Source of the DNA: Massospora cicadina
Taxonomy: Eukaryota > Entomophthoromycota > Entomophthoromycetes > Entomophthorales > Entomophthoraceae
Direction: 5' to 3'
DNA: 64,000 nucleotides
Assembly: GCA_022478985.1 (NCBI GenBank)
Contig: JAKSZP010014506.1
Coordinates: 183,147 to 247,146, forward strand
Of this stretch, positions 8,131 to 61,606 are shown piece by piece. Numbering within the stretch: the stretch's first letter is position 1; every line of letters starts with the position of its first letter. The translations under genes and the position numbers were made by a program. The notes beneath the pieces were generated by a model. The model had not been told where the DNA came from. It did no database searches and was given only the letters and a program-made list of their open reading frames with translations.

Positions 8131-8853
8131 CGTGGATTGTCTTTCTCGATTGCCCACAGTCACTATCACAGCGGATCTAGCTGATATAGTGTACAAAAAG
8201 ATGGTAGCGAACAAATACCAGGATGAGCCACTGCAGATGATCAAGGTGTTAGATGGACTCAGGGAGAATATCTTCATATGAGGGGAAGAATTATACAAGC
8301 AGATTGGATACTTGACGCTGAATTCTCCTAAGCCTTTGGCTAGACCCTCAATAATTATGGATGCTCATCAGGCTGTAGGCCATGGAGGATTGTGGAAGAC
8401 GCTAGAGTTTTTGTGACCCCAATACTTCTGGAAAAGCATGCATCACGATGTATTGGAAATGGTTAGCTGTTGCCATCAGTGTCAAGTGGAAAAACCTTTC
8501 ACAAGAAAACCACCTACCAACTAGTGAAACCCCAGTTTGCATGGCACACAGTTTCCATTGATGTAGTGGGACCTCTGCCAACTAGTGCTAATCAATCCAA
8601 GTATATAATTGTTGCCATTGATCATTTGACTTAATATGTGGAGGCCAGGTCTGTTAGCGACTTGGGCACAGTCACCACTGCCAAGTTTATTATGGAGTGT
8701 GTTATACAGTGGCACGGCTGCTTGCAGTTCATTCTGATGGACAACAAAACCAACTTCACTTCACATATCCTGCCAAAGTTAAATGAGTTGATGGCGATTC
8801 GTGGGGTTTTGACCACCCCCTATTATCCAGGATCAAATGGGATGGTGATAGTC
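8131..8853 (+). pseudogene. P1 integrase, N-terminal part, cut by N1
   Basis: Carries the zinc-binding H-x3-H part (D-A-H-Q-A-V-G-H, about 8357-8380) and C-C-H-Q-C (about 8468-8482). The core starts V-S-I-D-V-V-G-P with the first catalytic Asp at about 8557. The second Asp is in L-M-D-N-K-T-N-F (about 8738). The frame reaches Y-Y-P-G-S-N-G-M-V and then breaks at 8853, just before the catalytic Glu expected from relatives (E's integrase continues N-G-L-V-E-Q-V-N-G). Confidence 0.85.
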
Positions 8854-9189
8854 TGTAAGTTTTGAATTACACTTCCAATGGGGCAGGTGGTATCTCAAAG
8901 TTACACTGGGAGGATTCTCCAAAAAAGGTGATAAATTTAAAAGGAAATATAGGTTATAATTCAACCTAATCTTTATTTTTGAAAAGAGGGAATATTTATA
9001 GGCTTTTTTGGTTCATAATCTATCAGAGCGAATTAATCTCTGCGTGATTGAATCTTCAATCAATTGATTAGGATCAGATTGATCACTAACCTTGATATAT
9101 TGCAATATATTATTCGCTCCTTCCAATGATGTCAGGGGAATTGATGAAGTAGATTTTTTGAGATATGAGAATTTGGAGAAATCCTGACA
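8854..9189 (-). repeat. N1 3' LTR
   Basis: On the minus strand it begins TGTCAGGATTTCTCC and ends AAACTTACA. It aligns along its length with 14882-15221. Confidence 0.92.
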
Positions 9190-10389
9190 CTTCCCCCTCA
9201 AGATTTGATTGTGGTGGAGGATGACTTCTTAAAAACCTAGGATGAATATGATTTACCACTATACCAGTATCATTATGAACAATTGAATACTCTAATCCTT
9301 TACAAAATATAACTCTATAGGGACCAGACCAATTAGTTCCCAACTTTTCAGTCCGCCCACCAGGCTGAGAATGATAGTACATAATGTAATCCCCAATCTG
9401 GTATTCAGGTAAAACAGGTTTGTGTTGATTGCTCCTTTGAGTTTCTTTTTGTGTGGTTGTTTCAATTGAATTCATTGCTTGAGCCTGAAGATGGATAATC
9501 TCATCAGCCAAATTCCTCATAATTAAATCAGAATTTTCTGGGATGCTTTCCTCAAGGATTGTCTGAACACTAGAAGGGACTGAAGGATCCCGCCCATATA
9601 TACACTTAAATGGGGACATCTTGATAATGTGGTGGTAGCTTATCTGATAAGCAAACAAGGCACTAGGCAAATAAAATTCCACTGAGTCAGGTCAGTGGAT
9701 GCCATCTTTCTTAGAATCGAGACCAGAGTCCCATTAACTCGTTCAATTGCCCCATTTGTAGATGGATTATATGGGACAACAAATCGCTGAGTAGTATTAA
9801 ATAATTTGGATAACTCCTGTATAAGTTTCAAAGTGAAATTAGTCCCATTATCTGATATAAGAACCTTGGGACACCCATGTTGAGAAATGATATGCTGATA
9901 TAGGAATAATGCTGTAGTCTTAGCTGAAGGGGTAGCAATGGAAATGGCCTCAACCCATTTGGTTAAATGGTTGACAGCCATAATGATATACTGATGGCCA
10001 TGCAATCCCCGAGGAAAAGGACCTACAACATCAATGCTGACCACCTCAAATGACTTAGTCAGGGGAATAACTTGATGTTGATATGTAGGGTTGGTAGTTC
10101 CATGGCTTTTGCAGATAAGACATGAGTCAAGGGTCTCTTAAATTAACTCAGTCATGTTGTTCCAATAGTATAGTCTTCAACCATTCTTGATCTTCTTTAA
10201 GCTGCTATGACCAACTTGTTTGTGACCTTCCATTACAGCATAAAATCTAGAGTTGGGATGTAGGAAGGGCAACCACTTAGATTTGACTTTCTTATACAAA
10301 GCTCCATCTTGAATCATAGTATCTTTGGTAATTGATTTTAGAAAGGCGATCTTCTTCAGTTTCTCAATCCCATAACTCAGGTTGTCCAA
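9110..10389 (-). pseudogene. N1 integrase
   Basis: Inserts element DNA. The N-terminal zinc domain (about 10060-10389) shows G-H-K-Q-V-G-H-S-S and C-L-I-C, with in-frame stops between them. The core at 9640-10044 starts V-S-I-D-V-V-G-P-F (first Asp), has L-I-S-D-N-G-T-N-F (second Asp) and G-A-I-E-R-V-N-G-T (Glu), so the D,D,E triad is intact. The C-terminal ORF at 9110-9682 overlaps in another frame and has Y-G-R-D-P and a GPY-like W-S-G-P-Y-R-V. No chromodomain is visible before the LTR. The frame break near 9660 needs only a small indel. Confidence 0.88.
9190..9201 (-). other. N1 polypurine tract
   Basis: Minus-strand TTGAGGGGGAAG abuts the 3' LTR; this is the usual plus-strand primer position. 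Confidence 0.8.
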
Positions 10390-14860: not shown

Positions 14861-14878
14861 CCCCTGTAGTGAGCACCA
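14861..14878 (-). other. N1 primer-binding site
   Basis: Minus-strand TGGTGCTCACTACAGGGG, 3 nt from the LTR. Identical over 18 nt to the P1 site. Confidence 0.8.
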
Positions 14879-14881
14879 GTC

Positions 14882-15221
14882 TGGAAGTTTTGAATTACAC
14901 TTCCAATGGGGCAGGTGGTATCTCAAAGTTACACTGGGAGGATTCTCCTAAAAAGGTGATAAATTTAAAAGGAAATATAGGTTATAATTTGACCTAATCT
15001 TTATTTTTGAAAAGAGGGAATATTTATAGGCTTTTTTACAGTTTCATAATCTATCAGAGCGAATTAATCTCTGCGTGATTGAATCTTCAATCAATTGATT
15101 AGGATCAGATTGATCACTAACCTTGATATATTGCAATATATTACTCGCTCCTTCCAATGATGTCAGGGGAATTAATGAAGTAGATTTTTTAGAGATATGA
15201 GAATTTGGAGAAATCCCAACA
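14882..15221 (-). repeat. N1 5' LTR
   Basis: Minus-strand ends TGTTGGGATTT...AAACTTCCA. It is the partner of 8854-9189. Confidence 0.92.
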
Positions 15222-15607
15222 CTCTGCCTGCCTTGCTATATTTGTTTGTAGAGAACACTGGTGGGGTGAATCCTCAGCAATATCTGAATCAACTCATGGA
15301 TACATTGATCAAGTTGCAAATGGAAGCCTACTCCACCAGTTTAGCTAAAAAGATTTGTGACCAGGAGGCTGACCAGAAGCGCCAGAGTGGACTTATGTTG
15401 TTCGCTGTGGGGAACTATCTTTATTCCACAATCAGCATGGATTAAGATGAAAAATAAGCTCTCCAACATTTGGGTCAGCCCGTTTGAGACTATTGAGAAG
15501 AAAGGCATGGATGTTTACACAAGGAGCCTGCTGGGGGTCAGATTATCAAACAAGTTCATGTGAAGTTCCTTCAAGCATATAAACAGTAAGAGCCTATCAT
15601 CCAGTCA
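15222..15607 (+). pseudogene. P1 integrase C-terminal part, right of N1
   Basis: Resumes with L-P-A-L-L-Y-L-F-V-E-N and an amphipathic helix rich in Gln and Lys, matching the position of the integrase C-terminal region of N1 (after its Y-G-R-D-P block). A stop at about 15442 and a shift follow. The GPY-type segment is represented by I-W-V-S-P-F-E-T-I at 15468-15494. The catalytic Glu and about 55 following codons are absent from both sides of N1. Confidence 0.75.
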
Positions 15608-16464: not shown

Positions 16465-16745
16465 TAACAATTTATTTTATAAAATTTAGTTGATTTTATT
16501 GGTCAAATTATACTAAATTTACTGATTGCCATTTACAATCATTTATCTTATTAAATTTAGGTGATTTTATTGGTCAAAATATGCTGAATTAACTGATCAT
16601 CATCTAAAATAATTCATTTTATTAAATTTGATTGCTTTTATTATTCAATCTATGGTAAATATACTGGTTGCTATCAAAAAATAATTCATTTTATCAAATT
16701 TAGATGAGTTTATTGGTCAAATTATGCCAAAATGATAGCCATCTA
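16465..16745. repeat. AT-rich tandem array, four units of about 72 bp
   Basis: Each unit contains TTTATTAAATTTAG-TGATTTTATTGGTCAAA, then ACTGATTGCCATCTA, then AATAATTCAT, repeated four times at about 72-bp spacing with moderate divergence. Further units in the same orientation lie at about 17990-18075, and inverted units at about 39895-40000 and 40999-41080. Confidence 0.75.
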
Positions 16746-16878
16746 TAATGATTTAAACTCATCCCATTATGATCTCATACTGCCTGGATTTTGAACATAT
16801 CCCCCATCCATAGGACATATATCATAACAAAAGTTGTTTCAAAGCTATCACTTCACCAATTATGGAATTAAGTTTATC

Positions 16879-16901
16879 TTTTTTTTGTACTAGATGGTTG
16901 T
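16879..16901 (-). mobile_element. 23-bp micro-insertion with 13-bp target duplication
   Basis: An eight-T run followed by GTACTAGATGGTTGT is bracketed by AATTAAGTTTATC at 16866-16878 and 16902-16914. Read on the minus strand it ends in A8. It is the same word as at 22455-22478 and in the 42.1-kb cluster. Interpreted as a very short retroposed 3' end. Confidence 0.7.
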
Positions 16902-17100
16902 AATTAAGTTTATCCAGAGTTATATTAGTCCCACAGATATCCATCACTTATGATCCATTTTAATATACCTAATAAAACCAAAGGTCAGATACTGGACCAA
17001 TACTTACAAATGTAAAATGGGACCTAAGTTGGAGCATCCTCTTTTTTGAAGAAGATGATCATCCAGATTGGTCCTGTTTTTAGAGTTATGCGCAAAAGAA

Positions 17101-17570
17101 ATAAAAAAATAATTCAAGTTTTACCTTATGGTAAAAAACTTAAGGTTATGATATATGCCTTATGGATGAAGGTTATTAGAAACTTTCTTAACATTTTATC
17201 TACTGTTATGATAGAATGTTATTATTGTGTTTTTTCATTTAACTTTTAAAAGAATAATACCTGAGATAGTTAAATTACATTAATAATTGTTGGACTAGCT
17301 TAACTAAAAGCTGTGTGTGACAGCCAGCAAGTAGTTGGTAGATAAACTCAAATTTATACAATTGATGTTAAATTAGGTAGCATTTTAGTTGTGGTGGTTT
17401 AGGAAATTATCTTATAAGTTAAACATTATAAATGAATGTTTATTTCAACTCCTACTTATAGACTATTTACCAATCTCAGATAAACTTGACACAGATATTC
17501 TATGAAATATATATAAATTTGTTCAGTTGACTTGATTAATCCAATATTTCAGGTATAATGTTGGCAGTTT
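17101..17570. other. Unassigned AT-rich sequence
   Basis: No element end, domain or open frame that I can support between block U and the SINE. Probably older repeat sequence. Confidence 0.5.
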
Positions 17571-17588
17571 TTACTTATAGTTTTTATT

Positions 17589-17890
17589 TTTAAAATTTTT
17601 AAATTTTTAAATTTTTATTTGAGGTGGGCCAACCTAGGTATGATACCACACCAATTAAGGGATTTGAAGAAATTGGAAAGGAGGATAAAACCCAGAAAAC
17701 CTCCATGCACAGCATATGATAGGACAGGAACTTCATGGACCACCTTTGCTATTTGCTATCTCAGTTTGGGGCATTGGTGCGCAATGCAAACAAGGTGAAA
17801 ATCGCCCCCTACCCAAATATCATCTACTAGGATCAAACTTGGGGAGGCATTGGTAGAGGGTCCATATTCTACCACTGGGGTATCCTCCCC
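17589..17890 (-). mobile_element. SINE 1, tRNA-derived
   Basis: A 302-bp insertion flanked by a perfect 18-bp duplication TTACTTATAGTTTTTATT (17571-17588 and 17891-17908). On the minus strand it begins GGGGAGGATACCCCAGTGGTAGA, where ACCCCAGTGGTAGA resembles a Pol III A box, and CAAGTTTGATCC about 45 nt later resembles a B box. A unique body follows. The 3' tail GGTGTGGTATCATACC...CCCACCTC is followed by an A-rich stretch (AAATAAAAATTTAAAAATTT). The same tail ends SINE 2. Transcription would be by Pol III, and retroposition by a LINE enzyme. Confidence 0.85.
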
Positions 17891-17908
17891 TTACTTATAG
17901 TTTTTATT

Positions 17909-18138: not shown

Positions 18139-19423
18139 TGTTAGATCCTGGTGGTTGACCCAAAAATAAACCCTTTGACAACTAACAGAATGGCCAATTA
18201 TACTCCTAATACTTGAGCTAATACTATAATATAAATCTTAAAGACTATTGCAACTACACAGCTTGGCTGACTATATCAACCTCAATTCAATCTGAATATT
18301 CTATCAAAAGCTTTTGCTGAATACACTTGTAGATTCAGGCTGATTGTTGCTGCACCAAAGCTCAGCAATTAGTCCCACCTAATTGGGACAAATATTATTA
18401 ATTATATATAAATCATTCAGAATGGACCTGAAGATAACGTTTACTAATCCCATGGACAAATAGACATTAAAACATATCAACTTCCTGCCCTAAGGCGAAA
18501 TTAATATGTTCATCTTCATAAATTGGCATGATAGAGCTTGCACATGGACCACCCAAATGGAAGTATCTATTGCTATTGAGAGGGCCAGTTGACATCCAAA
18601 CAAGGGAGTCTTTTCCATCAGCTGTATGATGAAAACATGAATTGAGCTGGTCCTAAAATAATTTCCCACCTATGGCAAATTTTGTACGTTGATCCCTTGC
18701 AACTAGCACAATAGCACTTGCACATGGAACACCCAAATGGGACTACCTAGTGCTACTGAGAGAGGCCTGCTGACGTCCTAATTATGGGTGCATAATTTTC
18801 TTTAACCAACGCCAAAATTTTACAGAAGATGTAATTTGTCAGCATTATGATGAAACAAAAATCAAGAGAATCCTAGAAAGATTTTGCATGTTCTTATTGC
18901 GATTTTTGTCCCTGAAATCCTTCCAATTTTGAGAGTATTTTTACATCAATAAACCTAGCAATAGGTCTCAGTCATATCAGTTCAAGGGCTGAACTGAGGT
19001 GGAAAATAATCTGTTGAGATTACATGCCCAAATGTTGCCAGGAGAAGGCCTAGAGGTATAAATACTGGCGCCTGGCCTAATGACTAATCATAAAATAATT
19101 TAGTCTTAATAAAATATTTATTTTATTTATTCTTCTTTCTGATTTTTATCTTAAGTCTATTTTGGAGAGTGTCAGCATGCTGTATCCTTGATATCCACAG
19201 TATGTACCCTTGCCTGCTTTGGGAGAAGTTCCCAAATATGAAAGGAAAATTAGGCAAAATTGATCAGAAGAGTCAGGGATATTTGAATACGCCTAGTGAG
19301 CTTCTGAACAGTCAAAATACCATAAGACATTGGCAAAATTGAGGATCAATTTTGGCTGAACTTTGTCCCAATTAAGCATGCAAGATTTTATTTCTCAAGC
19401 GAGTGAGTGAAAAGAATTAAACA
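18139..19423 (+). repeat. A 5' LTR
   Basis: Starts TGTTAGATCC and ends AATTAAACA. U3 contains a two-unit tandem repeat with 180-bp period (GCACATGGA-CACCCAAATGG at 18540 and 18720). A TATA box, TATAAATA, lies at 19057-19064, and AATAAAATA signals at about 19106 would set R/U5. The same arrangement occurs in the copies at 37504 and 24367. Confidence 0.88.
19057..19064 (+). promoter_or_regulatory. TATA box of A-family LTR
   Basis: TATAAATACTGGCGCC is conserved in all three A-family LTRs (also 39248 on plus, and 24722-24729 on minus). It is followed by an AATAAA-type signal within 60 bp. Confidence 0.7.
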
Positions 19424-19505: not shown

Positions 19506-20367
19506 TTTAAGGAGAGTGTCTATAACTCTCCTATTACCAATGTGGTAGTGCATGGTGTACAGGGCCAACGCCAGGGAACTAGTCATTAGTAAAAAAAGTT
19601 ACTAGAATCCGGAAAGGGTTCTTAAGCAATAATAACTTAGGTCAAGGAGGGTTATCATTAGAGGGAATAACCAGACAGGAGCAACATGGTGCATGGAGTG
19701 GTAAGTTATAGGCGTCCTAGGTTGGAGGGAACCTGGGCGGCCCAACGGTGCATGGACTGATAGTTTTATCATAGTTAAAATTAAAAAATTAGTGTAGTGT
19801 GAGACCTCTGTGAAGAGGTCCACGCAAAGGATCATCCAAGATAACATAAATATAAAAACGGTGTACTATCAAAGGGGTTTATTATAAGGGAAGTCAACCA
19901 ATGGGAGAGATTGGTCTCAACATGAGGAATTTAAGGGATTTGGAAAAACAATCAATTGAAGGAAGTGGGTCTAAGCCAAGGCGCACCAATAGTCGCATGC
20001 TTCCATTGGGCAATACATTGTACTTTTTTAATCAACTAAACTTGGGTAATTGATTGTAGAAATGGCTGACCTGAGCTGGGAATTTCGAAAACTGAATAGG
20101 TTTCAAGACCCCGTTCACCTAAAAACCCAAGTGAACCATTTTTGTTTACTGCAAAGCTAGTTCATTTAACGCCCCTGCTGTTATACAGGGCTGAACTTCC
20201 CTTGCATCCTTAGGACCAACCTGGGCATACTTCACCTTAAACCCAGCGTTGATCTATGGTATGCTTGAGGTCAGGGAGGCCTGCCAACTTCACCTTCTTG
20301 GCCTCCTGACATGCTGCTTTGTCTTTAACGTTGGTCCCAATTATGATGTCATTTTCCAACCATGACA
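19506..20367 (-). repeat. H 3' LTR
   Basis: Minus-strand ends TGTCATGG...CTCCTTAAA. It pairs with 35406-36832. ORF 19602-19847 and ORF 20237-20446 lie in or across it and are not genes. Confidence 0.85.
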
Positions 20368-20866: not shown

Positions 20867-21623
20867 TCAAGCATCATGAGATCTCTTCTTTGTATGCTGG
20901 ACCCACTCATTGCTTAACATCAGCATTCTCTTTATATACTTGCATTTCCTCCTCCAAATTTGTGGAAACCCCTGGTGTACTTTCTTGATAGTCTTTACAA
21001 AGTCCACCACCGCTTCAACTTTAGATCCATAGCTGGGCTCCATGTTAAAGGCGGGGTTAAACCATGGTTGGAGAAAATGGGGAACAACCAAAGAATGCAA
21101 AGTGTTGTTGTAGCTAAACTGGGCCATAAAAAGGTTAGAAACCCAATCTGAATGATCCATGGCAGTGTAACACTGCAGGATTTGTTCCGAGCACTGGTTC
21201 ACTCGTTCAGTCTGCCCATCTGATTGGGGGTGATAGGCAGTTGAATGGCAGGGGCGAATCTGAAGAGTTTTACACATTTCTTCCCAAAAGATGGAGGTAA
21301 ACTGGGGTCCACAATCACTAATTATTTCTTGAGGGACCCTATGAAGCGCAAACACATGAGTGACGAAGAGCTTAGCCATATCAGCTGTGATTATTGTTGT
21401 TCTGCAAGAAATAAAGTTGGCAAACGTCATAAAATGGTCATTACCACCATTTGGCATCATAACCATCAGAAACAGGTAATTAAACAATGAAATCCACTGA
21501 TAGGGAAAACCAGGGACCTTCATCCTATTGAACTGGTACCAACAACCCCACTAAAGGTTGATGATTTAATTTTATTTGATTGCAGATCAGACACTATTTA
21601 CAATACCGTCCCACCTGAACAGG
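20867..21623 (-). pseudogene. H integrase core and second half of zinc finger
   Basis: The 218-codon ORF at 20867-21523 has E-I-I-S-D-C-G-P-Q-F (catalytic Asp) and H-P-Q-S-D-G-Q-T-E-R-V-N-Q (catalytic Glu). The first Asp region is frameshifted near 21480. Upstream, 21540-21623 carries Y-C-K-stop-C-L-I-C-N-Q, the C-x2-C half of the zinc finger. The H-x-H half lies on the other side of E at 32720-32830. Confidence 0.82.
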
Positions 21624-22824
21624 TGTAAAAATTTATTTTTTTATGTTATTATCAGCAAGCAACCCCAATAAACTTATTACTGCACAGGTTTGGTCTTGTG
21701 CAATTTGTCTGCGTTGTATAGTATATGATATTATTGATTGATAATAGTATGACGACTATTATCTGTAGTTGAGTGAAATTCTTATATCTTGGCCCAATGC
21801 TCGGCCAGTATTCCCACTGGAAATACTTGAGATGTCTTGATATAGGGATTCATTCCCTCAGATTGTCCAACCCAATCTTCTCTGAGATTCCCTGGTGACA
21901 GTCTCTTTGGTTCAACACACAGTTGGAAGCAATTCTCAATTGTTTCTCCTTCTTCCCTAGATCCCCGCTCAGATCTTTACTCTTTTCCTTAAGAGTCTCC
22001 CAATTAGTGCACACAGCAATAATATCCTTGAAATGAATAGAACAATTGAAAGCTGATAATACTTTACTCTTAAACTATATATTGGATGAAAAGTATAGAC
22101 CTATTTATCTGTAATATGATCTAACTGTTTACTATAACCTGTTTTTTATTATGAGTGAATTCTAGGGAATTTATAGTGAGTATTTGGTCATCTAACCCTT
22201 GGTTGACACCTCTTTGGTAAAATGGCAGCCGTTGCCATTAAATCACCCATCCTAATCTCATCAGCGATGGTATTCCCCATCCTGGCTAAGATTCTAATGT
22301 TGTAGTCCCCAATACCTAAACAGAAAGAATCAGTTAATGTGTCCCTAATGTTTTCCTTTCAATCCAAGAAAACTAACCATATTTGGCTAGCGACCTGCCT
22401 AGGTAATGGGACTTATTACCCATTAAGTCAGGTCACAAACCAACTGATCTTTCTTTTTTTTTAGTACTAGATGGTCCCACCAACTGATCTTTCTCTAGTT
22501 GCAGGCTGCATCACTCACCTCACAACTTACTACTCATTCCCAATCAGTTGGTGATGAAACCCAACTGATCCCAATCGGTACACCTGATAGTTAATTTACT
22601 ACCAGATGCCACTATTTCGTTGGCAACTCTGCCTGACAAGATCTTAAGCATTCATATGGATCAACCCCTGATGGATCTGACCTAGAAAAATAACCTAAAA
22701 TCACCTGAACATTATTACCCTGAAATTAGGGTCCACCAATTCCAATTCACCTTGCATTAGAGAATTGTCCCCTAGCGATTCCTAGTAATCTAGTAGGCTG
22801 GGAATATGGGCAAAAATCCCAACA
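21624..22824 (-). repeat. E 3' LTR
   Basis: Minus-strand TGTTGGGATTTTTGCCC...AAATTTTTACA. The polypurine tract AGAGGGGGGTG lies directly inside at 22825-22835. It carries a 24-bp micro-insertion at 22455 that is absent from the 5' LTR. Confidence 0.9.
22455..22478 (-). mobile_element. 24-bp micro-insertion with 16-bp target duplication
   Basis: Eight T then AGTACTAGATGGTCCC, bracketed by ACCAACTGATCTTTCT at 22439-22454 and 22479-22494. The E 5' LTR (near 32378) has neither the insert nor the second copy, so the event followed integration of E. On the minus strand the insert ends in A8. Confidence 0.85.
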
Positions 22825-27454: not shown

Positions 27455-27700
27455 TTCTATCAATCTCTTTATTTTTATTTTTCTTTTTTCCATGGGACTT
27501 GACCTTGTTTCGGTTCAGCAGTCCATCTTTCTTTATTTTTCCACCAAATAAGGTCCTAGGTACTTAAACCTACCAGTTTTCTATGGTTCAGAGGTCATTT
27601 TTGGATGTAACCATCTAGATTGGTTCAGGGCTCTTTTTTTCAGACTTGACCTAATCATCAGAACATGGCCAACTTAATGGTTCATCAATCCTTCAGGAAC
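27455..27700 (-). repeat. GGTTCA repeat block, copy 1
   Basis: GGTTCA at 27512, 27585, 27622 and 27679, each preceded by ACTTGACC- or AACC-type words. It aligns with 30500-30770 in the same orientation and with similar spacings. The two copies flank E's pol. Confidence 0.6.
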
Positions 27701-31556: not shown

Positions 31557-32719
31557 TGTAAAAATTTATTGTTTTAGGTTATTATCAGCAAACTTCCCCA
31601 ATATACTTATTACTGCACAGGTTCAGTTCTTGTGCATTTCATCCACATTATATAAAATATATGATATTATTGGTTGATAATAGTATGACAAATATTATCT
31701 ATAGCTGAGTATGATTCTTATATCTCAGCCCAATGCTCAGCCAGTATTCCCACTGGAAATACTTGCAATGTCTTGATATAGAGATTCATTCCCTCATTCT
31801 GTCCAACCTGATCTTCTCTGAGATTCTCTGGTGACAATCTCTTTGGTCCAACACATAGTCAGCAGCAATCTTTGATTGTTTCTCCTTCTTCTCTAGATCC
31901 CCACTCAGATCTTTACTCTTTTCCTTAAGAGTCTCCCAATTATTGCACACAGTAATAATATCCTTGAGAAGAATAGAACAGTTGAAAGCTGATAATAGTT
32001 TACTCTTGAACTATATACTGGATGAAAACTATAGATTTATATATCTTTAATATTATCTAACTGTTTACTATAACATGTTTTTTACTATGGATGAATTCTA
32101 GGAAATTTATAGTGCTGATTCAGTCATCTAACCCTCAGTTGACACCTCTTCGATGAAACAGCAGCTGCTGCCATTGAATCACCCATCCTCATCTCAGCAG
32201 CGATGGTCTTCCCCATCCTAGCTAGGATTCTAATGTTGTAGTCCCCAATACCTAAACAAAAAGAGTTGAAAAACGTGTCCCTAACGTTTTCCTCTTGATC
32301 CAAGTGAACTAACCATATTTGGCTAGCAACCTGCCTAGTTAATGGGACTTATTACCCATTAAGGCAGGTCACACACAAATGATCAATTCGCTAGTTGCAG
32401 GTGGCATCACTCACCTCGCAACTTACTACTCATTCCCAATCAGTTGGTGATGAAACCTGGTTAATTCCAATTAGTACACCTGATAGTTAATCACTATCAG
32501 ATGCCCCTATTTTGTTGGCAACTCCACCCGACGAGATTTTAGGTATACATCTGGATCAATCCCCAATGGATATGACCAGGTGAATATCCCAAAATCCCCT
32601 GAACATAGTTACTCCAAAATTAAGGTCCACCAATTTCCAATTTGCCTCGCATTAGGGAATTGTCCCATAGAAATTCCTGGTAATCTAGCAGGCTGGGAAT
32701 ATGGGCAAAAATCCCATCA
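31557..32719 (-). repeat. E 5' LTR
   Basis: Minus-strand TGATGGGATTTTTGCCC...AATTTTTACA, partner of 21624-22824. Confidence 0.9.
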
Positions 32720-34409: not shown

Positions 34410-34787
34410 TTAGAAGTGGTCAGATAAATGGTATTTTCCAAATTGATAATCCACTAACCTTATAACTTTCAGTGTGGGAATACCTTGGGAAGCCTCTCCT
34501 CTAACCATACCACCTGGAACGTAACTCAGCTCAAGGTAGCCAGCTAGGTTTTGGTCCATAAAATTATCAGAGGCTCCAGTATCCACCAAAATAGTGGTGC
34601 TGAATTTCCCTAAAGGGGATGAAAGAGTAGCAGTCATTAGAAAATAACCCAAATGATCTTTATTTAAAGCAGAAAACGCCAGCACTGCACCACCAAACTC
34701 TTCATCTGGCATTAACATGTCTCCCTGGTATGTCCTTAAATCATAAAATGAAGAGGTATAATTGGCCACACTTACTACTGAGGCCAC
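34410..34787 (-). pseudogene. H aspartic protease
   Basis: A 125-codon open segment. T-T-I-L-V-D-T-G-A-S-D-N-F-M-D (about residues 62-78) contains an intact D-T-G-A-S active site typical of chromovirus retropepsins. The downstream flap region includes Y-V-P-G-G. The Gly-rich second block is lost beyond the stop at 34410. The family acts as a dimer. Confidence 0.82.
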
Positions 34788-35405: not shown

Positions 35406-36832
35406 AGTAAGGAAAGTGTCTATAGCTCTCCTGTTCCAATGTGGTAGTGCATGGTGCACAGGGCCAAATCCAGGGAACTAGCCATTAATACAAAAGTTAC
35501 TGAAACCCAGCAGAGGGTACTTAAGCAATAATAACTTAGATTGAGGAGGGTTATCATTAGAGGGAATAACCAAACAGGAGCAATGCGTTGCACAGAGTGG
35601 TAAAGTATAGGCGTCCTAAGTTGGAGGGAACCTTGGCAGCCCAATGGTGCATGGATGGATAGTTTTATCATAGTTAAAATTAAAAGATTAATTTAGTGTG
35701 AGATCTCTGTGAAGAGGTCCAAGCACATGATTGTCCAAGATAACATAGATATAAAAATGGTGTACTATCAAAGGGGTTTATTATAAGGGAAGTCAACCAA
35801 TGGGAGAGATTGGTCTCAACATGAGGAATTTAAGGGATTTGGAAAAACAATCAATTGAAGGAAGTGGGTGTCAGGTTTCCCCAAGATGTGCTCGCTGATG
35901 CTGATGCAGGTGAACCCAACAAGTAGGCTGACTGCAAGGGGCTGGCGTCAGCCAAGAGGACAGGGGTGGCTCCAGACATGACAATGGATAAGACTCCATT
36001 CATTTTGATAAATTAAACTTAATAAAATATAAGATAAAATAAATATTATGAATTGAAGTGTTTTATTAGGATAATATTTAGGGATATTTATAGGGTATTT
36101 GAGGACACATGCCCCAAGGATCATCGTGGCCCCATCCAAGTAGGGTTTCTCCTAGCCTTCTGGATTGCCCATTGTTTTGATCCTTACTCAGATCTCACCG
36201 CCCTTGTGACCAGGTCAAGTGATATCCCAGGTCACATGTCCTAAGAGAAGGGAATGTACCATTTCCTCAAATTTGGGGTAATTTATACCAAGCCCTGAAT
36301 TTGGTATACTTGTAGATTTGACTCTTGTTTTCAAATCTAATAATCCATTTAGGATTTACACCTCTTGAAGGGGGATGTTGATCCTTCCTCTGGACAAGGC
36401 TTACACCTAACCCAGGGAAAATCCTGACAGTGGGTCTAAGCTAAGGCGCACCAATAGGCACATGCTTCCATCAGGCAATACACTGTACTTGGTAATTGAC
36501 CCAAACTCAGGTAATTGATTGTAGAAGCAGCTGACCCAAGATGGAAATTTCAAAAACTGAATGGGTTTTGAGACCCCGTTCACCTAAAAACCAAAGTGAA
36601 CCATTTTTGTTTACTGCAAAGCTAGTTTGTTTTAACGCCCCTGCTGTTATACAGAGCTGAACTTCTCTTGCATCCTTAGGACCAACCTGGGCATACTTCA
36701 CCTTAACTCAGCGTTGATCTATGGCATGCTTGAGGTCAGGGAGGCCTGCCAACTTTACCTTATTGGCCTCCTGACATGCTGCTTTGACTTTAACGTTAGT
36801 CCCAATTATGATGTCATTTTCCAACCATGAAA
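35406..36832 (-). repeat. H 5' LTR, interrupted by a solo LTR
   Basis: Aligns with 19506-20367 on both sides of the insertion at 35869-36429. Its outer end reads AA where the partner has CA. Confidence 0.85.
35869..36429 (+). mobile_element. Solo LTR in the H 5' LTR
   Basis: 561 bp, TGTCAGGTTTCCCC...AAATCCTGACA, with imperfect inverted ends and a perfect 5-bp duplication GTGGG at 35864-35868 and 36430-36434. The H 3' LTR is uninterrupted here. Orientation is not certain because the ends are near-palindromic. ORFs 35948-36139 and 36053-36244 inside it are not genes. Confidence 0.88.
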
Positions 36833-37503: not shown

Positions 37504-39608
37504 TGGTAGATTCTGGTGGTTGACCCAAAAATAAGCCCTTCAGCAACCAACAAATTGGTCCAATCTTCATCCTAATTCTTGAGATAATACTCTAATTCTC
37601 AACTTAAAGCCTATTTCAACTACATGGCTTAGGCTGACTATATCAACATTAATTCAAATGAAAATATTCTATCAAAAGCTTGGTCCAAATACACTTGCAG
37701 ATTCAGGCCAATTGTCACTGCACCAAAGCTCACCAATTAGTCCCAACTAATTGGGACCAGTATTATTAATTAGCAAAAAAAATTGTTTAAAAATTGATCT
37801 AAGATAATGTCTACTAATCCTATAGACAAGTAGATGTTACAACATAATTAATTTCTTGCCCTAGGACAAAAATTTGTATGTTGATCTTAATAATTGGGGG
37901 GTTAGATTGGTGTATCCCCCTTTAGGTTGGGACCACCTAGTGCAAAAAAAGATCTTCATAATTGGCATGATAGTACTTGCACATAGACTGCCCAAATGGG
38001 AGTACCTAGTGCTATTAAGAGGGCCAGTTGACATCCCAATTAGGTAGGTGTTTCTGTCAGCTATATGACAAAAACACAAATTGAGCTGGTTCTAAGAATA
38101 ATTTCCCACCTATGGCAAATTTTGTATGCCAATCCTCATAATTAGCATGATAGCACTTGCACATGGACCACCTAAATGGGAGTTCCTAGTCCTATTAAGA
38201 GAGGCCTACCAACATCCCAATTAGAGGTGCATCATTTTATTCAATTGATGCCAAAATTTCACAGAAAATCTATTTCATCAGCAATATGACAAAACTCAAA
38301 TTGAGGGAAGTCTAGAACAATTTTACACATTCTTATTGTTGTAACAAATGGGGCTCCCAAGGCCCAGCCCGCCGCCAGCCCTTAACCACCACCCCCATAT
38401 GTGGCTGTACCAACTCCATATGGTCCTGTCCAAATGGATGGCCTTGACAGGCATCCAGGCTGAGGTGTGGTGCACCAGTCTCTGTTGCCATGGGCCCCCA
38501 GGCTGAGGTGCATCCCTATGGTCTCTGTCACCTCAGGGTTATCTGGCCGAGGTGTGGTCATCCAGCCTCTGTCACCTCAGGCCACTCTGGCTCCTTCCCC
38601 TCTCACCAGGGCAAGGCCGCTCTCAAGAGAATCCTGGCGCATCCACCCCCTTCCCTCTCCTCCTCATCGCACTGCCATCTGCACCCCCAATCCTTGCTTA
38701 AATAAATAAAATTAAATAAATGGATCCAGCAAATTGCAGCCTTTATTGAGAATAGATTCAAAGTCAGAATAGAATTCCAAAGTGAGGTCTGATGGGCTGA
38801 CCTCACTTTGATATACTTTTTATTTAAATAGGCTAAATAAATTGGATGTAATGAGGGGCACAAAAGCCTCCAGAATTGATGGCATCCAGGCAACTCAATG
38901 GAGAATTGGAGGGGAACCTCAGAACGGACAACCAATCAAATAAATAATTTTATTTAATTTAATTTATTCCATTATTGACCCAAATAGGAAAATCCTACTT
39001 GGAATAATGGAATTGCAACTATCAATGCATACAAATCTCATAATTCCCAACTTTATGAGATTTATGTATGATTGTCAATTGTTACAATTGTGATTTTTGT
39101 CCCTAAAATTCTCCCAATTTTGGGAGTATTTTGCCACCAATAAATCTATTAATAGATCTCAGTTATATCAGTTCAAGGGCTGAACAGAGTTGGAAAATAA
39201 TCTGTTGAGATTGCATGCTCAAATGTTGCCAGGAGATGACCTAGAGATATAAATACTGGCGCCTGGCCTAATGACTAATTATCAAAATTAGTCTTTATAA
39301 AAGACTAATTTACTTATTCTTCTTTCTGATTTTTGTCTAAAGTCTATTTTGGAGAGTGTCAGCATGCTGTATTATTAGAATCCACAGTTTTTACCTTTGC
39401 CTGCCTTGGGAGAAGTCCCCAAGTATGAAGGGAAAATTGGGCCCAAAGTTGACCAGAAGAGTCAGGGCTATTTAAATATGCCTAGTGAGCTTCCAAATGA
39501 TCAAAATACCATAAGACACTGGCAAAATTGAGGATTATTTGGCTGAACTTCATCCCAATTAAGCATGTAGGATATATTTATCATGTGAGCAATCTGCAGA
39601 ATTTAACA
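37504..39608 (+). repeat. A 3' LTR, interrupted by a solo LTR
   Basis: Starts TGGTAGATTC, ends AATTTAACA. It matches the 5' LTR along its length, including the 180-bp U3 repeat, except for an inserted 747-bp solo LTR at 38340-39086. Confidence 0.88.
38340..39086 (+). mobile_element. Solo LTR (unrelated family) in the A 3' LTR
   Basis: Begins TGTAACAAATGGGG and ends CAATTGTTACA, with a perfect 5-bp duplication ATTGT at 38335-38339 and 39087-39091. The A 5' LTR lacks it at the same point. Its central part is GC-rich, with unusual (CTC)-rich sequence at about 38600-38700; open stretches there (38467-38709 on plus, 38603-38935 on minus) are not genes. The TGTAACAAA start resembles F-family LTRs. 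Formed by LTR-LTR recombination. Confidence 0.88.
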
Positions 39609-41934: not shown

Positions 41935-42084
41935 TTTACTTTTCTAAATTGATCACTAAATTTATATTTTATCAAAAAGCCTACCCTAAAGATTATACAT
42001 AAAAAGTATTTTTTAGAAATAATGGTTTAACTGCTTATATACCTAAAAGTTAAATGGAGTTTAGAATCAACTTTTTTAGCATTA

Positions 42085-42226
42085 TTGGTGCCCAACCCAA
42101 AAGGAGGAGCTGCCACACATCAGAAGCAGCTTTTTTTAGTACTAGATTCAGAAGCAGCTTTTTTTTAGTACTAGATGGTCCCAACCCAAGGGGGGGATTC
42201 ATCATGTCAGAAGCAGCTTTTTCAAC
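42085..42226 (-). mobile_element. Clustered micro-insertions of the AGTACTAGAT family
   Basis: TTTTTTTAGTACTAGA at 42131-42146 and a T-run plus AGTACTAGATGGTCCC at about 42159-42182 lie between copies of TCAGAAGCAGC (42120, 42148 and 42208). CCCAACCCAA also recurs at 42091 and 42181. This fits two successive insertions at one target, each with its own duplication. Confidence 0.7.
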
Positions 42227-42592: not shown

Positions 42593-43377
42593 CTAGCGGA
42601 GTTCCCCGTGCTTTGCTACGGTGTCTATAGAATTTCAGGTGATTCGAATTGATTAATTTAGATTTTATATATAGTTAAGCAATATCTACTCGGCCAAATC
42701 TAATTGCTCAATCGAACCAAAACCACCAACCATTCAGCTAAAATTAACTGAACTTATCAAATCAACCAATAACTAATCACCCCAAAGCTAAACTGTATCC
42801 TATCGATTTGACCAAAGACCATCAACCACTCGGCCAAATAAAATAAACCTATCAAATTAATCAGAATTTAAGTTATTTTAGCCTTTATATTGGTAGATAG
42901 CTATCAATAAGTTCAGAAACCATTAAACCTATTAAAAATCCCAACCTCCAACCACTTAGCTAAAATTGATTAAGTCTGCCAAATTAATTAAACCATCAAT
43001 CTCTTATCTGAAACTATTGAGCCTATCGAATCAACCAAAAAATAAACCACTACTTAGCAAAAATCAATTATGAAACTTACAACAGCCAAAAAACATCTAC
43101 TAAAAAAAAAACTTACAACAGCCAAAAACCTATTATCAAAAAAATCGAATTAAATGAATATGAAAATACCACGCCAAATTACTATATAAATATATTAGAA
43201 ATATATGTTCTAGATCTTAAATAGAACTGATGTTTAAATTTATGATTATTTTAAATAATTACATATTAGCATTCTGTTCCCAAACTTTATAGATAAGTGT
43301 CTGAAATAGAGCTTGTAAGATTTAATTACAGACAGACAGAATTGACAGTGAGTTTAAGAAAAGTGTATAAAAAGTGA
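42593..43377 (-). mobile_element. Helitron-like element, 785 bp
   Basis: Minus strand: 5' A-TCACTTTTTATACAC with CTGTCTGTCTGTAATT nearby; 3' hairpin CCGTAGCAAAGCACGG (42606-42621), GGGAACTCCG, then CTAG and host T. Insertion between A and T without duplication holds at both ends. The body matches 1520-1800. It has no RepHel gene, so it would need an enzyme from elsewhere. Confidence 0.55.
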
Positions 43378-49945: not shown

Positions 49946-50574
49946 TTGTCAATTTAATTGGTCAATAGGCTATATAATGTGGTCAAATAAAATTTCAACA
50001 CATGAAAAGTTTGCAAACTTCGTCCACTGAGGAGAGATTATCTCCAAAAGCAAGGTCACATCCTGATGTCATATAGCATCCATAATGTTAGTAGACCCTA
50101 AGTGTCTACTATAACAGTACTCCTCACTTGAGTAGGGAGGGCAGCAGCATTGTATTATGGCCACTATGGTCTAGTTTTTATGTAGACTAAGAAAAATATG
50201 GCCCCTATAGTGGAGCAGCTATCAGATAAAGGGTGTAATTTGAAATGAGAAAAATCTGAGTGGAAGTTTGTTTACTGAAACAAAAAGTAGAAAATTGACT
50301 GATAACTGTATCTGTGGGGACAGTTTTCTTATGTGCTAGGGATTGAGGAATAAATAATTTTTGCATTAACCAAGGGTAACGCAATCACATTTGATTACAG
50401 TGGATTGACATTCAAAATCCTCCTGACGCTATATCAATCTCATTCTTGACTAGAAGACATATGCACATATTTTGCCCTCAAATTTCCATCCAAGCGCGAT
50501 TTCACTTAGCAGATTGGCAACGCTTTGTATGATGGTTGACTGGGTGATCCCTTAGCCAGGCCACATATAGGAGG
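49946..50574. other. Unassigned sequence
   Basis: Contains TATATAATG at about 49973 and no supported open frame. Possibly the rest of a divergent LTR. Confidence 0.4.
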
Positions 50575-55700: not shown

Positions 55701-56307
55701 TGATTGAGCTGGTAGTACATTGGCTGAAGCCGCATCAAATGAAGATTCCAGCCCCTCCAAACAGGAAGGTAAGGGTACCTCCAAAGTGTGCTTCAGCAAC
55801 GGAGAAAAACTAAGTGTGTGGACCTTGGGTCATTCGGGAATATTGCTCTGAGAGTTAGCTACAGATAAGGGACAACTAATTTTTAATCATTCTTTAAAGT
55901 TAATGACAAGGTATTGTCTTTCAAGTTGGTTCTGACGTAAAACTTTCACCACTATTCTACTCCCAAAATTATGGGGTATAAAAGGTTTTTGATTCCTTGG
56001 AAGCGGTCAGCTAAATGTTATTTGTCAACTAGATAGTCCACTAACCCCAGAACCTTTAGCGTGGGTATACCTTGGGAAACCCCTCCCCTAATCATACCAC
56101 CTGGCAAGTAATTCAAAATAAGATAGTCGACTAGGTCTTGGCAATAAGATTCTCAGAGGATCTTGTATTTACCAGAATAGTTGTGCTAATTTTCCCTAGA
56201 GGGGATGAAAGGGTAGCAGTCAGCAAAAAATATCCAGAATGGTCTTTATTCAAAGTAGAAACGCCAACACCTCACCAGAAAACCCTTCATCAGGCATAAG
56301 CATGCAT
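55701..56307 (-). pseudogene. G2 protease and linker, cut by the LINE
   Basis: Aligns with H 34200-34700: L-G-K-I-S-T-T-I-L-V-type residues near 56180, V-P-G-G-M-I-R-G near 56095, and L-K-V-L-G-L-V-D near 56040. The D-T-G site falls in a broken stretch near 56160. The sequence breaks at the LINE duplication and continues at 61607. Confidence 0.6.
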
Positions 56308-56618
56308 CCAAGATAAGTTTTAAATTTTAACTTTATTACGGGGAAGGCTGACCAGGGGACGGACACTTCTGAAAAAACACTAAACAGCTAAGCAGATTCA
56401 GCGAGAGGAGGGTACATCAGAGAAGCAAACGCTAACTCCTGTTGCCAGTGGGAACACCAAAAGAAGGAAGGGGGTTACGTGTGCAGGGGCATGCGCCACT
56501 ATTGAGCATGTGTGAAGGAAGGGGTCTGAGACGATGAGCCTAACCGGGAACCAGGAGGAGACCAACTGGCGGCGACGTGGTGGAAGGTACCCAAACATCC
56601 AGGCTTGAAAGTGGTCTT

Positions 56619-58010
56619 CTAATTGCGACCAGATCTGGCGTACAGCCTCTCAGAGGGTGGGGATGGAGCCAGAGATGGCATCCAAGACAACCGTGTGGTT
56701 AGTCCACATAGTGATTGTGACCACCAAGGCTCAGAGGGAGGGTGGGAGAGGGGAGGCCATGGATAGAGAAAACATGTCCTTAAATAGGCTGAAAGGCTGT
56801 GTCTGATCCTAGCAAAACAGACGTTGCACCTCACGCCATATCGCTTTAGATGGAGGGCACTCTTCCAGGCGGTGAACCAGCGTTCCATACTGGCCACACA
56901 CAACACAGGATGAGTGCAAAGCATTAGAGCGGTTGGCAGTGCAGTTACCCATCTCAAGCAGTGCCACGCATGTGAACGCACCTGTGGTTGTAAAAGAGGG
57001 TGGTGGGCATACTTCCAAATGGCTTTCTGGGTATCAAGGGGGTATGGGATGTCCATCATGTCCAGGTAGTCCACTCTGGCCATGGTAGGGGGTCTCATGG
57101 GTATCACTTCATTCAGAATGGGAAGTCCTTGTACCTCCAGGGTGAACTGAGGAGAGAGACGCCCCCTCTGGGCTGCATGCCCACATATGCGAATTCTCCA
57201 CTCAGCGCTCCACATGGAGAGGAGGATCCTTTTGAACTGGGGCGATGTCCCATGTGGGCCCACTGCAGAAGGATGTGAAGCCAGGTACTTTATCAGAGAG
57301 TTGGGGTGGGAAGGGTTGTTGAGGCTCAGGGCGCGGGAGAAGTTGGAGTGGGCTGCGCAGGACCAGTGCTGGGAAAAAATTGTAGGGTTAGTAACGGCAG
57401 CGATCCAGGTGCCAATAATTTGGGTTGCATGGGCCCTAAAGTCGAGCAGGCCCATATCACCACTATGGCGAGGGCCAAACATGACATACAGGTGCACGGG
57501 TGGTGGGCAGCCCAACCAAAGCCACCCTTGCAGAAGGGCGTATAGCGACCTGAAGAAAAATGGGGAGAAAGCGATGGCGTGGGCCCCAAACCAAACTTTA
57601 GAGAGGAGCATAGAGTTGGCAAGCACTACCCTGCTTGTAAGGGAGGTCTTATGGGCTTTGAGGGAAGCTATGCATTTTGTCACGTTGTCTAGGATATGGT
57701 TTTCCATCACCAATGCGGCGTACCCTCCTGCCTCCAGCCACACCCCTAAATGGCGGACAGGGCCAACGGTGGGGCTTGGCACAAAGGGGAGCACAAGTGG
57801 GGCGGTGTGGGGTGGGCAGGGCAAGCAAGCTCATGCGCTAGCTGACGAGGCGGGTAGGAAACAGGGCGCTGGGGCCCAGCGGGCTTGATACTGACCAAGG
57901 AGAACAATTTCGGTTTTGGATGCGTTGATTGCAGCATTACTTACCCTGGAGTAAACCTGGATAGTCTCTTAAAGGGCGCGTGCATCATGATTGTTAGACA
58001 CTCCAACCAC
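56619..58010 (-). pseudogene. LINE ORF2, RT thumb and C-terminal zinc segment
   Basis: The longest open frame in the window (56619-57824, 401 codons). It starts in the RT thumb (V-R-H-L-G-V-W-L, then M-G-L-L-D-F-R-A-H-A-T-Q-I-I-G). It follows the true frame down to about A-L-P-T-A near 56930 and is then out of frame. The real C-terminus is in the overlapping frame 56809-57018 with C-V-V-C-G-Q-Y-G-T-L-V-H-R-L-E-E-C, a C-x2-C-x7-H-x4-C zinc segment typical of LINE ends. One shift at about 56905-56945 explains both. F-A-D-D, the RT active site, is at about 58010-58021. Confidence 0.85.
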
Positions 58011-58950
58011 ACAATCATCAGCAAATGCCAACATCTTGACTGGGGTTTGGCCTTGCACGTGGACCCCAGTAAAGCGGGAATTCACATTTTAAAGAAGTGG
58101 GTCAAGGCTGAAGTTATACAAGATTGGGCTAAGAGGGTCTCCTTGGCGCAGTCCCCTCTGAGGGCGGACTACTTCGTGAGAAAGCCAGGACCACGCACAG
58201 CCATTGTGGCGGATTCCATAAGCAGCATCACCCAATTGATGAAGCGGGGGGTAGGCGGAACTTGTGAAGGAAGGCTCTGAGGTATTCCCAGTTGACTCTA
58301 TCATGCGCTTTCTGCTGGTCTAAGAATACAAGTGCTCCAGAGGCCGTGGACTGACAGACGTTGGCTACGGTGTGATATTGTCCCAAATTGACCTTCTGGG
58401 TATGAAGTTGAATTGTTCAGGGGAGATGAGAGCAGATGCAACAATCCCTAGACGGTTAGCCATGATTTTAGTAAAGATTTTTGTGTCAATGTTAATGAGA
58501 GAGATGGGGCGCCAGTTGGCCAAGTCCAGCTTATCCCCTTTTTTGTAAAAAGTAATCGTGAAGGCCTCTTGTCCTCCAGGCAAGAGGCGTGTTTCCAGAA
58601 GGCATTGGTTAAGAGAGGCAAGCAGCAAGGAGGATAAATCTTTAAAATACTTCTTATAAAACTCATAGGGGATGCCATCTGGACCTGGGTATTTCCTATA
58701 CATTGCACCACGAACAGAGGCCCAGAGTTTGTCTTGAGTAATCAAATTCATCAACTTCAGGATTTTGGAAATGGTGCAGATGTGTGCTCTTTCAAGGAAA
58801 TTTGCCATTTTTGCTGGCTGAATAGGATTGGATCGATACAATTCAGAGTAATAATTTTGTATTTTGATCGCCACATCGGCTGGCATGTCCACAACGGACT
58901 GGTCTGGCCTACACACCTGTGTGCAGGCCAAACTCTGGTGTGGCACAAAG
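58011..58950 (-). pseudogene. LINE ORF2, reverse transcriptase
   Basis: Minus strand: A-N-W-R-P-I-S-L-I-N-I-D-T-K-I-F-T-K (about 58480-58530), then L-I-S-P-E-Q-F-N-F-I-P-R-R-S-I-W-D-N, then Q-Q-K-A-H-D-R-V-N-W-E-Y-L (about 58290-58330, first catalytic Asp), V-V-R-P-Q-R-G-L-R-Q-G-D-P-L-S-P-I-L-Y-N (58100-58170), and A-F-A-D-D-C-V-V-G-V (58005-58030). All LINE RT blocks are recognisable; frame breaks near 58360 and 58090. Confidence 0.88.
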
Positions 58951-60130: not shown

Positions 60131-60182
60131 TTTCTTCATGGCGCTTGGTGGCGCCTCATTATGTGATGCTATAAAGTAAATG

Positions 60183-61503: not shown

Positions 61504-61592
61504 CTAATCTCCTCAGTGAGATTATCAAACTTTACCAGACTTGGATTGAATTTTGTTGCAAAAGTGTTTGTAATAAGAGAGAAAAGTTCCCT
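61504..61592 (-). other. LINE 5' untranslated region
   Basis: About 90 bp between the 5' target duplication and the ORF1 start. No promoter motif recognised. Confidence 0.6.
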
Positions 61593-61606
61593 CCAAAATA
61601 AGTTTT

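What the first reader, a model, noticed from the sequence alone, without database searches (positions are those of the whole stretch)
22439..22494. A 24-bp insertion with its own 16-bp target duplication in the E 3' LTR
ACCAACTGATCTTTCT is repeated on both sides of T8-AGTACTAGATGGTCCC. The sister LTR at 31557-32719 lacks both the insert and the extra copy, so this is a dated, clean event. On the other strand the insert is CATCTAGTACT followed by A8, exactly what a retroposon cut back to its last 16 nt would leave. Insertions this short with a full-length duplication are rarely described.
Basis: partly seen in the sequence, partly recalled or inferred. Interest (0 to 1): 0.8.

Follow-up and report, generated by a model that had tools for sequence, protein, structure and literature searches.

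The report
Ultrashort LINE stumps with target duplications
The 16-letter insert is a real, extremely short copy of the tail of a jumping gene (a LINE), and in this giant, probably fungal genome about nine in ten sampled copies of that tail are such stumps of 12 to 49 letters, which suggests that copying usually stops at one of two places near its start.

Summary
In detail: 22439-22494 is a 16-bp target duplication around T8-AGTACTAGATGGTCCC (minus strand GGGACCATCTAGTACT-A8). The sister LTR and five other copies of that LTR have the single, empty site. It is one of thousands: the 18-mer CCATCTAGTACTAAAAAA occurs 31,059 times exactly in the 1.47-Gb genome, its reversed control 0 times. The parent is a LINE ending AATAAA-CATCGATGAATCCCCCC-TTGGGTTGGGACCATCTAGTACT-A(n). 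Of the first 100 listed places, 90 match only 12-49 nt of it; 85 of those 90 have a target duplication; a swapped control gave 1 of 100. Matched lengths are discrete: 69 at 12-28 nt, 0 at 29-39, 21 at 40-49, 2 at 58-92, 8 at 500 or more. So most insertions end either inside the 3' arm of a predicted 3' hairpin or just after AATAAA. Best reading: target-primed reverse transcription by this LINE with two strong stop sites near the start; a short RNA template is the main rival. Single ultrashort Alu and poly(A) insertions are known in human disease; a family dominated by them I did not find in ten paper searches. The host is probably an entomophthoralean fungus, not proven.

The parts
22439..22454 (-). 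target-site duplication, copy 3' of the A-tail (minus strand AGAAAGATCAGTTGGT)
22455..22462 (-). A8 tail (T8 on the + strand)
22463..22478 (-). LINE-derived body GGGACCATCTAGTACT, the last 16 nt of the LINE
22479..22494 (-). target-site duplication, copy 5' of the body
21624..22824 (-). host LTR of element E (3' LTR; Ty3-like element, minus strand by inference)
   Evidence: integrase piece 20867-21550 with an rve match just under the Pfam cut-off (29.4 against 32.6 bits)
31557..32719 (-). sister LTR with the empty site
16866..16914 (-). second stump: 13-bp duplication GATAAACTTAATT, 15-nt body ACAACCATCTAGTAC, A8; empty site in a paralogous repeat near 1045
37883..37965 (+). third stump: 46-nt body of a variant tail (CACCTAGTGC), A7, 15-bp duplication with one mismatch; empty site near 18512-18526
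42148..42222 (-). fourth stump: 40-nt body CATGATGAATCC..ATCTAGTACT (42167-42206), A8, 16-bp duplication whose 3' copy shares its first A's with the tail
42120..42147 (-). second copy of the unit ATCTAGTACT-A(n)-GCTGCTTCTGA: more likely a tandem duplication than its own insertion
42072..42119 (-). probable older stump, about 42 nt, diverged; imperfect repeat of the target seen by eye
43073..43128 (+). probable stump: body ACATCTACT, A-tail, 20-bp duplication

Best explanation
The insert is a 5'-truncated copy of a LINE (non-LTR retrotransposon) made by target-primed reverse transcription. Shown: it consists of the LINE's last 16 nt plus a short A-tail, flanked by a 16-bp duplication, with empty sites in related copies. 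Shown: about 90% of sampled copies of this LINE tail are equally short, and their 5' ends are not spread out but fall in two zones. Inferred: the LINE's reverse transcriptase starts at the A-tail, most often gives up while opening the 3' arm of a short hairpin (GAUG..CCCC / GGGG..CAUC) that ends the RNA, or else stops just after the AATAAA signal about 40 nt in; only about one in ten passes both and then usually copies 500 nt or more. The aborted cDNA is nevertheless joined and repaired like a normal insertion, which leaves a stump with a full-length target duplication.
For: Anatomy. Parent LINE: 8 of 100 places match 500 nt or more of one LINE 3' end; its ORF2-type C-terminal region matches the LINE frame of the window (31-34% in the main alignments) and Massospora protein P0121 (29-37%) by tblastn in L009, L011 and L020. 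Copy number: 31,059 exact 18-mers, reversed control 0. Lengths in the first 100 listed places: 12-16 nt 43, 17-24 nt 23, 25-28 nt 3, 29-39 nt 0, 40-43 nt 15, 44-49 nt 6, 50-499 nt 2, 500 or more 8. Duplications: 85 of the 90 short places (5 without: L034, L061, L065, L077, L081); within 80 nt upstream 85 of 100 with score 10 or more against 1 of 100 with another place's upstream, and 75 against 0 at 13 or more. Target starts with A in 80 of 86 and has A second in 76 of 86. In 209 kb of fetched DNA and window, 66 of 68 short A6-plus-duplication structures end in this motif, though the fetched DNA was chosen because it holds the motif. Hairpin: the variant copy at 37898 has GGTG..CACC where the others have GATG..CATC.
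Against: Predicted folding energy of the tail is no better than shuffles, and only one compensatory change was seen. The 40-43 stop lies outside the hairpin and needs a second cause. The sample is the first 100 listed places on contigs C1-C8, exact matches with 12 nt plus A6, so bodies under 12 nt and mutated copies are not sampled. Of the 10 places over 49 nt only L013 showed a duplication; for most of the others the 5' end lies beyond the searched flank, but L021 (58 nt) and L068 (92 nt) simply have none. Measured by the duplication instead of by match, six bodies fall in the 29-39 gap (36-39 nt: L018, L031, L032, L044, L053, L100; three of them with perfect duplications), and two of these (L031, L100) are counted as 12-28 nt by match because they are diverged. 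The RT, the RNA and the process were not observed.
Confidence: 0.65

Rival explanations
1. Short RNA template: the LINE RNA is cut at or just after AATAAA (and further downstream), and the released 12-43 nt 3' fragments with their A-tail are themselves the templates; the 40-43 nt class would be end-to-end copies of such fragments.
For: The sharp 5' end at or next to (A)CATCG in most of the 40-49 class, and the fact that 12-28 nt from the 3' end is also about 12-28 nt downstream of AATAAA, the usual distance of poly(A)-site cleavage (general knowledge).
Against: No RNA data; free 3' cleavage products are normally destroyed (general knowledge); ends of the first class fall in the 3' arm of the predicted hairpin.
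Confidence: 0.25
2. The stumps are copies of an independent, very small SINE-like element and not of the LINE.
For: The 40-nt class has a nearly constant 5' end; a 276-nt SINE-like retroposon with a similar 3' end lies at 17615-17890.
Against: 8 of 100 copies continue into LINE sequence; a 12-16 nt body has no room for a promoter; Rfam gives no tRNA-like match around 37898.
Confidence: 0.05
3. Break repair that captured a LINE 3' end, or template switching, with the duplication made by the repair.
For: Extra nucleotides at some 5' junctions (for example L014, L015, L046).
Against: Duplications of 13-18 bp in 75 of 86 scored sites, A-rich targets and the A-tail next to the 3' duplication are the marks of target-primed insertion.
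Confidence: 0.04
4. Chance or tandem duplication.
For: Two other scan hits in the window (16606-16698, 62847-62898) look like tandem repeats that imitate the pattern.
Against: Empty sites, 31,059 exact copies against 0 for the control, 85 against 1 in the swapped test.
Confidence: 0.01

Closest known systems
5'-truncated LINE-1 copies (mammals)
   Same: Made from the 3' end, A-tail, target duplication (peak 14-16 bp for full-length human L1, PMC2912911, passages; here mostly 15-18 bp), A-rich target.
   Different: In mouse about 60% of L1 copies are under 400 bp and the short class studied is 100-400 bp (PMC11084082, passages); here 90 of 100 are at most 49 nt, in two discrete classes.
Single ultrashort insertions in human disease
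   Same: Truncation almost to the tail is possible: an Alu of 6 bp plus A40, four insertions listed as poly(A) without a named element, and an L1 of 90 bp plus A22 with a 21-bp duplication (PMC4859970 Table 1, passages and section 6 part 3).
   Different: For the 6-bp Alu the duplication is given as N/A and there is a 1.4-kb deletion; three of the four poly(A) cases have deletions and no duplication, the fourth a 6-bp one. Here full duplications are the rule and the stumps number in the thousands.
LINEs with a recognised 3' stem-loop (UnaL2 type; recalled, no call)
   Same: Short tail and a hairpin close to the 3' end that could be the RT's landing site.
   Different: Here recognition was not tested, and the hairpin seems to be where copying fails.
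SINEs
   Same: Short, A-tailed, duplicated target.
   Different: No promoter, no own 5' part; the sequence is a LINE 3' end.

Membership tests
LINE 5'-truncated insertion | sequence is the 3' end of a LINE | tested here: met
LINE 5'-truncated insertion | target-site duplication of variable length with an empty site in relatives | tested here: met
   this site; family
LINE 5'-truncated insertion | A-rich target at the first-nick side | tested here: met
   A first in 80 of 86, A second in 76 of 86 (the test lets the duplication reach into the A-tail); this site begins AGAAAG
LINE 5'-truncated insertion | RNA intermediate and the LINE's own RT and endonuclease | not testable with these tools
   no RNA or protein data; the parent's endonuclease region was not examined
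SINE | internal Pol III promoter and own 5' head | tested here: not met
   body is 16 nt of a LINE 3' end; Rfam scan around the 46-nt variant gives no tRNA-like match
MITE or other cut-and-paste element | terminal inverted repeats and duplication of fixed length | tested here: not met
   by eye the bodies listed have no inverted ends; duplications vary from 10 to 23 bp as scored
LINE with recognised 3' stem-loop | conserved 3' hairpin needed by the RT | tested here: inconclusive
   same predicted hairpin in three variants, one compensatory change, energy not better than shuffles

The most novel reading that the evidence does not exclude
A class of micro-retroposons: discrete, cleaved 3' fragments of a LINE RNA, 12-43 nt long with an A-tail, are themselves efficient templates and have been inserted tens of thousands of times with full target duplications, below the length that repeat annotation detects.
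Probability: 0.25. Interest if true: 0.85.

Novelty: new variant of a known kind. Interest (0 to 1): 0.7.

Why it matters
How LINE copying ends early is an open question; in mammals truncation points are spread over kilobases. Here thousands of natural stumps, most of them bounded by duplications in the sample, mark apparent stop points to the base near the start of copying, so the first steps of target-primed reverse transcription can be read from a genome. Inserts of 12-49 nt plus an A-tail are likely to be missed by usual repeat annotation (inference), so by this sample the true insertion rate of such a LINE may be about ten times the visible one; each event adds roughly 35-70 bp including the duplication.

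Tried and rejected
Tried: scans for the tail in viral contigs and prokaryote genomes, and a related-locus search in viral contigs: all 0. Rfam and tRNA scans of the window: nothing. Rfam with E-value threshold on the SINE-like element and on 37898: only matches far below their gathering scores. Folding of the tail against shuffles: not significant. Early idea that the parent is the 276-nt SINE at 17615-17890: its 3' end resembles the 37898 copy (1 of 500 shuffles for the last 60 nt, 8 of 500 for the whole; 0 of 2000 under milder gap costs, but only fourth in a whole-window scan, query's own place and a sister copy included); the other two long copies gave no significant match to the SINE's last 60 nt; dropped when the LINE parent was found. 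Scan hits 16606-16698 and 62847-62898 dropped as tandem repeats, 27467-27540 as low complexity. A first check of the other LTR copies failed on orientation for most of them and was replaced. Paper some searches failed on wording. Answered paper searches, none of whose listings showed a LINE family dominated by ultrashort copies; the library lacks most subscription journals. Not obtained: genome counts of k-mers further upstream, the second tail type, a control LINE (tool busy).

Full report
What was claimed and what is there. The sequence is exactly that: 22439-22454, 22455-22462, 22463-22478, 22479-22494. On the minus strand it reads duplication, GGGACCATCTAGTACT, A8, duplication. The sister LTR (31557-32719; the pair is 83% identical over 1205 columns) has neither insert nor second copy. 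When the genome became searchable, 54 matches to the region were listed; of seven other LTR copies fetched, five matched my search expression and all five show the single-copy site.

Not alone in the window. The same tail followed by a run of A occurs at 16880 (-), 37898 (+, a variant), 42163 (-) and 42132 (-). A scan for A-runs followed by a repeat of upstream sequence found 9 structures in the window against 0 or 1 in each of 20 Markov shuffles. Of 113 runs of six or more A, the 5 with the tail motif all had a duplication, against 2 of the other 108 (the motif was chosen from these sites and one of the five is the tandem unit below, so the test is partly circular). Empty sites exist in paralogous repeats for 16880 (near 1045) and 37898 (near 18512-18526) as well. 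The 10-nt unit at 42138-42147 is more simply part of a tandem duplication of 28-29 bp. I count four firm insertions (16, 15, 46 and 40 nt) and two probable ones (42072-42119; 43073-43128).

The parent. The window lies in a genome of 1,469,884,898 bases in 16,968 contigs. The exact 18-mer CCATCTAGTACTAAAAAA occurs 15,453 times forward and 15,606 times reverse; the pattern read backwards occurs 0 times. I examined the first 100 listed places (contigs C1-C8; 30 loci, the others). Eight match one LINE for 500 nt or more. In L009, L011 and L020 its ORF2-type C-terminal region matches the LINE frame of the window at 56619-57830 (31-34% in the main alignments) and a Massospora cicadina protein, P0121 (29-37%). 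The frame printed for L009 ends, counted by eye, about 65 nt before the A-tail; the rest reads ..AATTCAATAAACATCGATGAATCCCCCCCC TTGGGTTGGGACCATCTAGTACT-A(n). The copy translated, L009, carries stops and was only described.

The length distribution. By match to the LINE end, the 100 places fall as follows: 12-16 nt 43, 17-24 nt 23, 25-28 nt 3, 29-39 nt 0, 40-43 nt 15, 44-49 nt 6, 50-499 nt 2, 500 or more 8 (long values are lower bounds set by the fetched flank). So 90 of 100 are at most 49 nt. Of these 90, 85 have a target duplication (five have none: L034, L061, L065, L077, L081), and 64 have a perfect one of 13 bp or more. A control that paired each 3' flank with the upstream of another place gave 1 of 100 at score 10 or more (own: 85 of 100 within 80 nt) and 0 at 13 or more (own: 75). 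Measured by the duplication instead, six bodies are 36-39 nt: L044 and L053 begin at CATCG with a short run of C, L032 begins at CGATG, in L018 the imperfect duplication is drawn over CATCG, and L031 and L100 are diverged and counted as 12-28 nt by match. So the gap is sharp in the element's own coordinates but not perfect. Of the ten longer places only L013 showed a duplication; most of the others run past the searched flank, while L021 (58 nt) and L068 (92 nt) have none. Only exact matches with at least 12 nt and six A could be seen, so shorter bodies and old copies are missing.

Anatomy of the stops. The first class mostly begins within TTGGGTTGGGA|CCATC, that is, in the 3' arm of a predicted hairpin GAUG-AA-UCCCC..GGGG-CAUC; few begin in the 5' arm (3 of 100 at 25-28 nt and 0 at 29-39 by match). 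The second class begins mostly at CATCG, ACATCG, AACATCG or AAACATCG, directly after AATAAA. Past that point 8 of 10 are long. This is not what a generally weak enzyme would give; it fits two strong local stops. The folding energy is not better than shuffles; the one support for the hairpin from comparison is the variant at 37898, where GATG/CATC has become GGTG/CACC. Duplications are 15-18 bp in 65 of 86 scored and begin with AA in most, and the A-run is 6-9 in 95 of 100 places, part of which belongs to the target. In 209 kb of fetched DNA and window together, 66 of 68 short structures of this kind end in this tail; the fetched DNA was chosen for this tail, so this says only that pure A-tails or other tails are rare around it.

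Mechanism. Best supported is target-primed reverse transcription by this LINE: nick, priming on the A-tail, early arrest, then normal completion with a full duplication. Which step causes the arrest is inferred. Arrest while opening the 3' hairpin explains the first class; the second may reflect a protein on AATAAA or the end of a cleaved RNA. The rival, short RNA templates produced near the AATAAA signal, explains the sharp second class better and is not excluded.

Known and new. Truncation nearly to the tail is known as single human events: an Alu of 6 bp with A40 (1.4-kb deletion, duplication given as N/A), four poly(A)-only insertions (three with deletions and no duplication), and an L1 of 90 bp with A22 and a duplication (PMC4859970, Table 1; passages and section 6 part 3 read). 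Duplications of full-length human L1 peak at 14-16 bp (PMC2912911, passages). In mouse about 60% of L1 copies are under 400 bp (PMC11084082, passages). In ten answered paper searches (listed under Tried and rejected) I saw no family dominated by stumps of 12-49 nt. If the 100 places are representative, the exact 18-mer alone stands for about 28,000 stumps; this is an extrapolation.

Host. Chitin synthase domains (PF01644) are present twice, and in 0 of 14 control genomes, which the answer does not name; one frame's best PDB matches by sequence are chitin synthases (that the top entries are yeast enzymes is recalled). The only protein match of the window LINE frame is from Massospora cicadina, 57% over half the query. 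The E. muscae genome paper reports 56.8% Ty3 and 6.3% L1 in M. cicadina (PMC11105155, passages). Against this, the named hits among the listed matches of two Ty3-like pieces are mostly arthropods and plants and none that I saw is fungal (120 of 301 and 120 of 389 listed, most without a name). An entomophthoralean fungus is therefore likely, not shown; contamination of either kind was not excluded.

Verdict.

Noticed in passing
17569-17908 (-): A 276-nt SINE-like retroposon with an 18-bp duplication and an A/T-rich tail (AAATAAAAATTTAAAA..); the head looks tRNA-like by eye (recalled motif; no tRNA match by ARAGORN or Rfam). Its 3' end resembles the tail variant at 37898.
   Followed up: partly
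42072-42222 (-): Two or three tail-bearing inserts stacked on the same 16-bp target, one unit probably a tandem duplication; suggests a repeated target or local slippage.
   Followed up: partly
56305-61609 (-): A LINE inserted in a Ty3-like element whose paralogue around 34719-34740 marks the empty place; its 3' end CCCCGTAATAAAGTTAAAATTTAAAA is a different tail and would be the natural control for stump formation.
   Followed up: partly
35870-36428: About 560 bp present here and absent from the paralogue at 19964-19970, with a 7-bp overlap of the two alignments: looks like another insertion with a short duplication.
   Followed up: no
8850-9191 and 14878-15223: A pair of about 346-bp repeats, 96% identical, 6 kb apart around pol frames: probably the LTRs of a young LTR element.
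   Followed up: no
50156-50210 (+): A 27-nt insert ending GACTAAG-A5 between imperfect 14-bp repeats; possibly an unrelated short retroposon.
   Followed up: no
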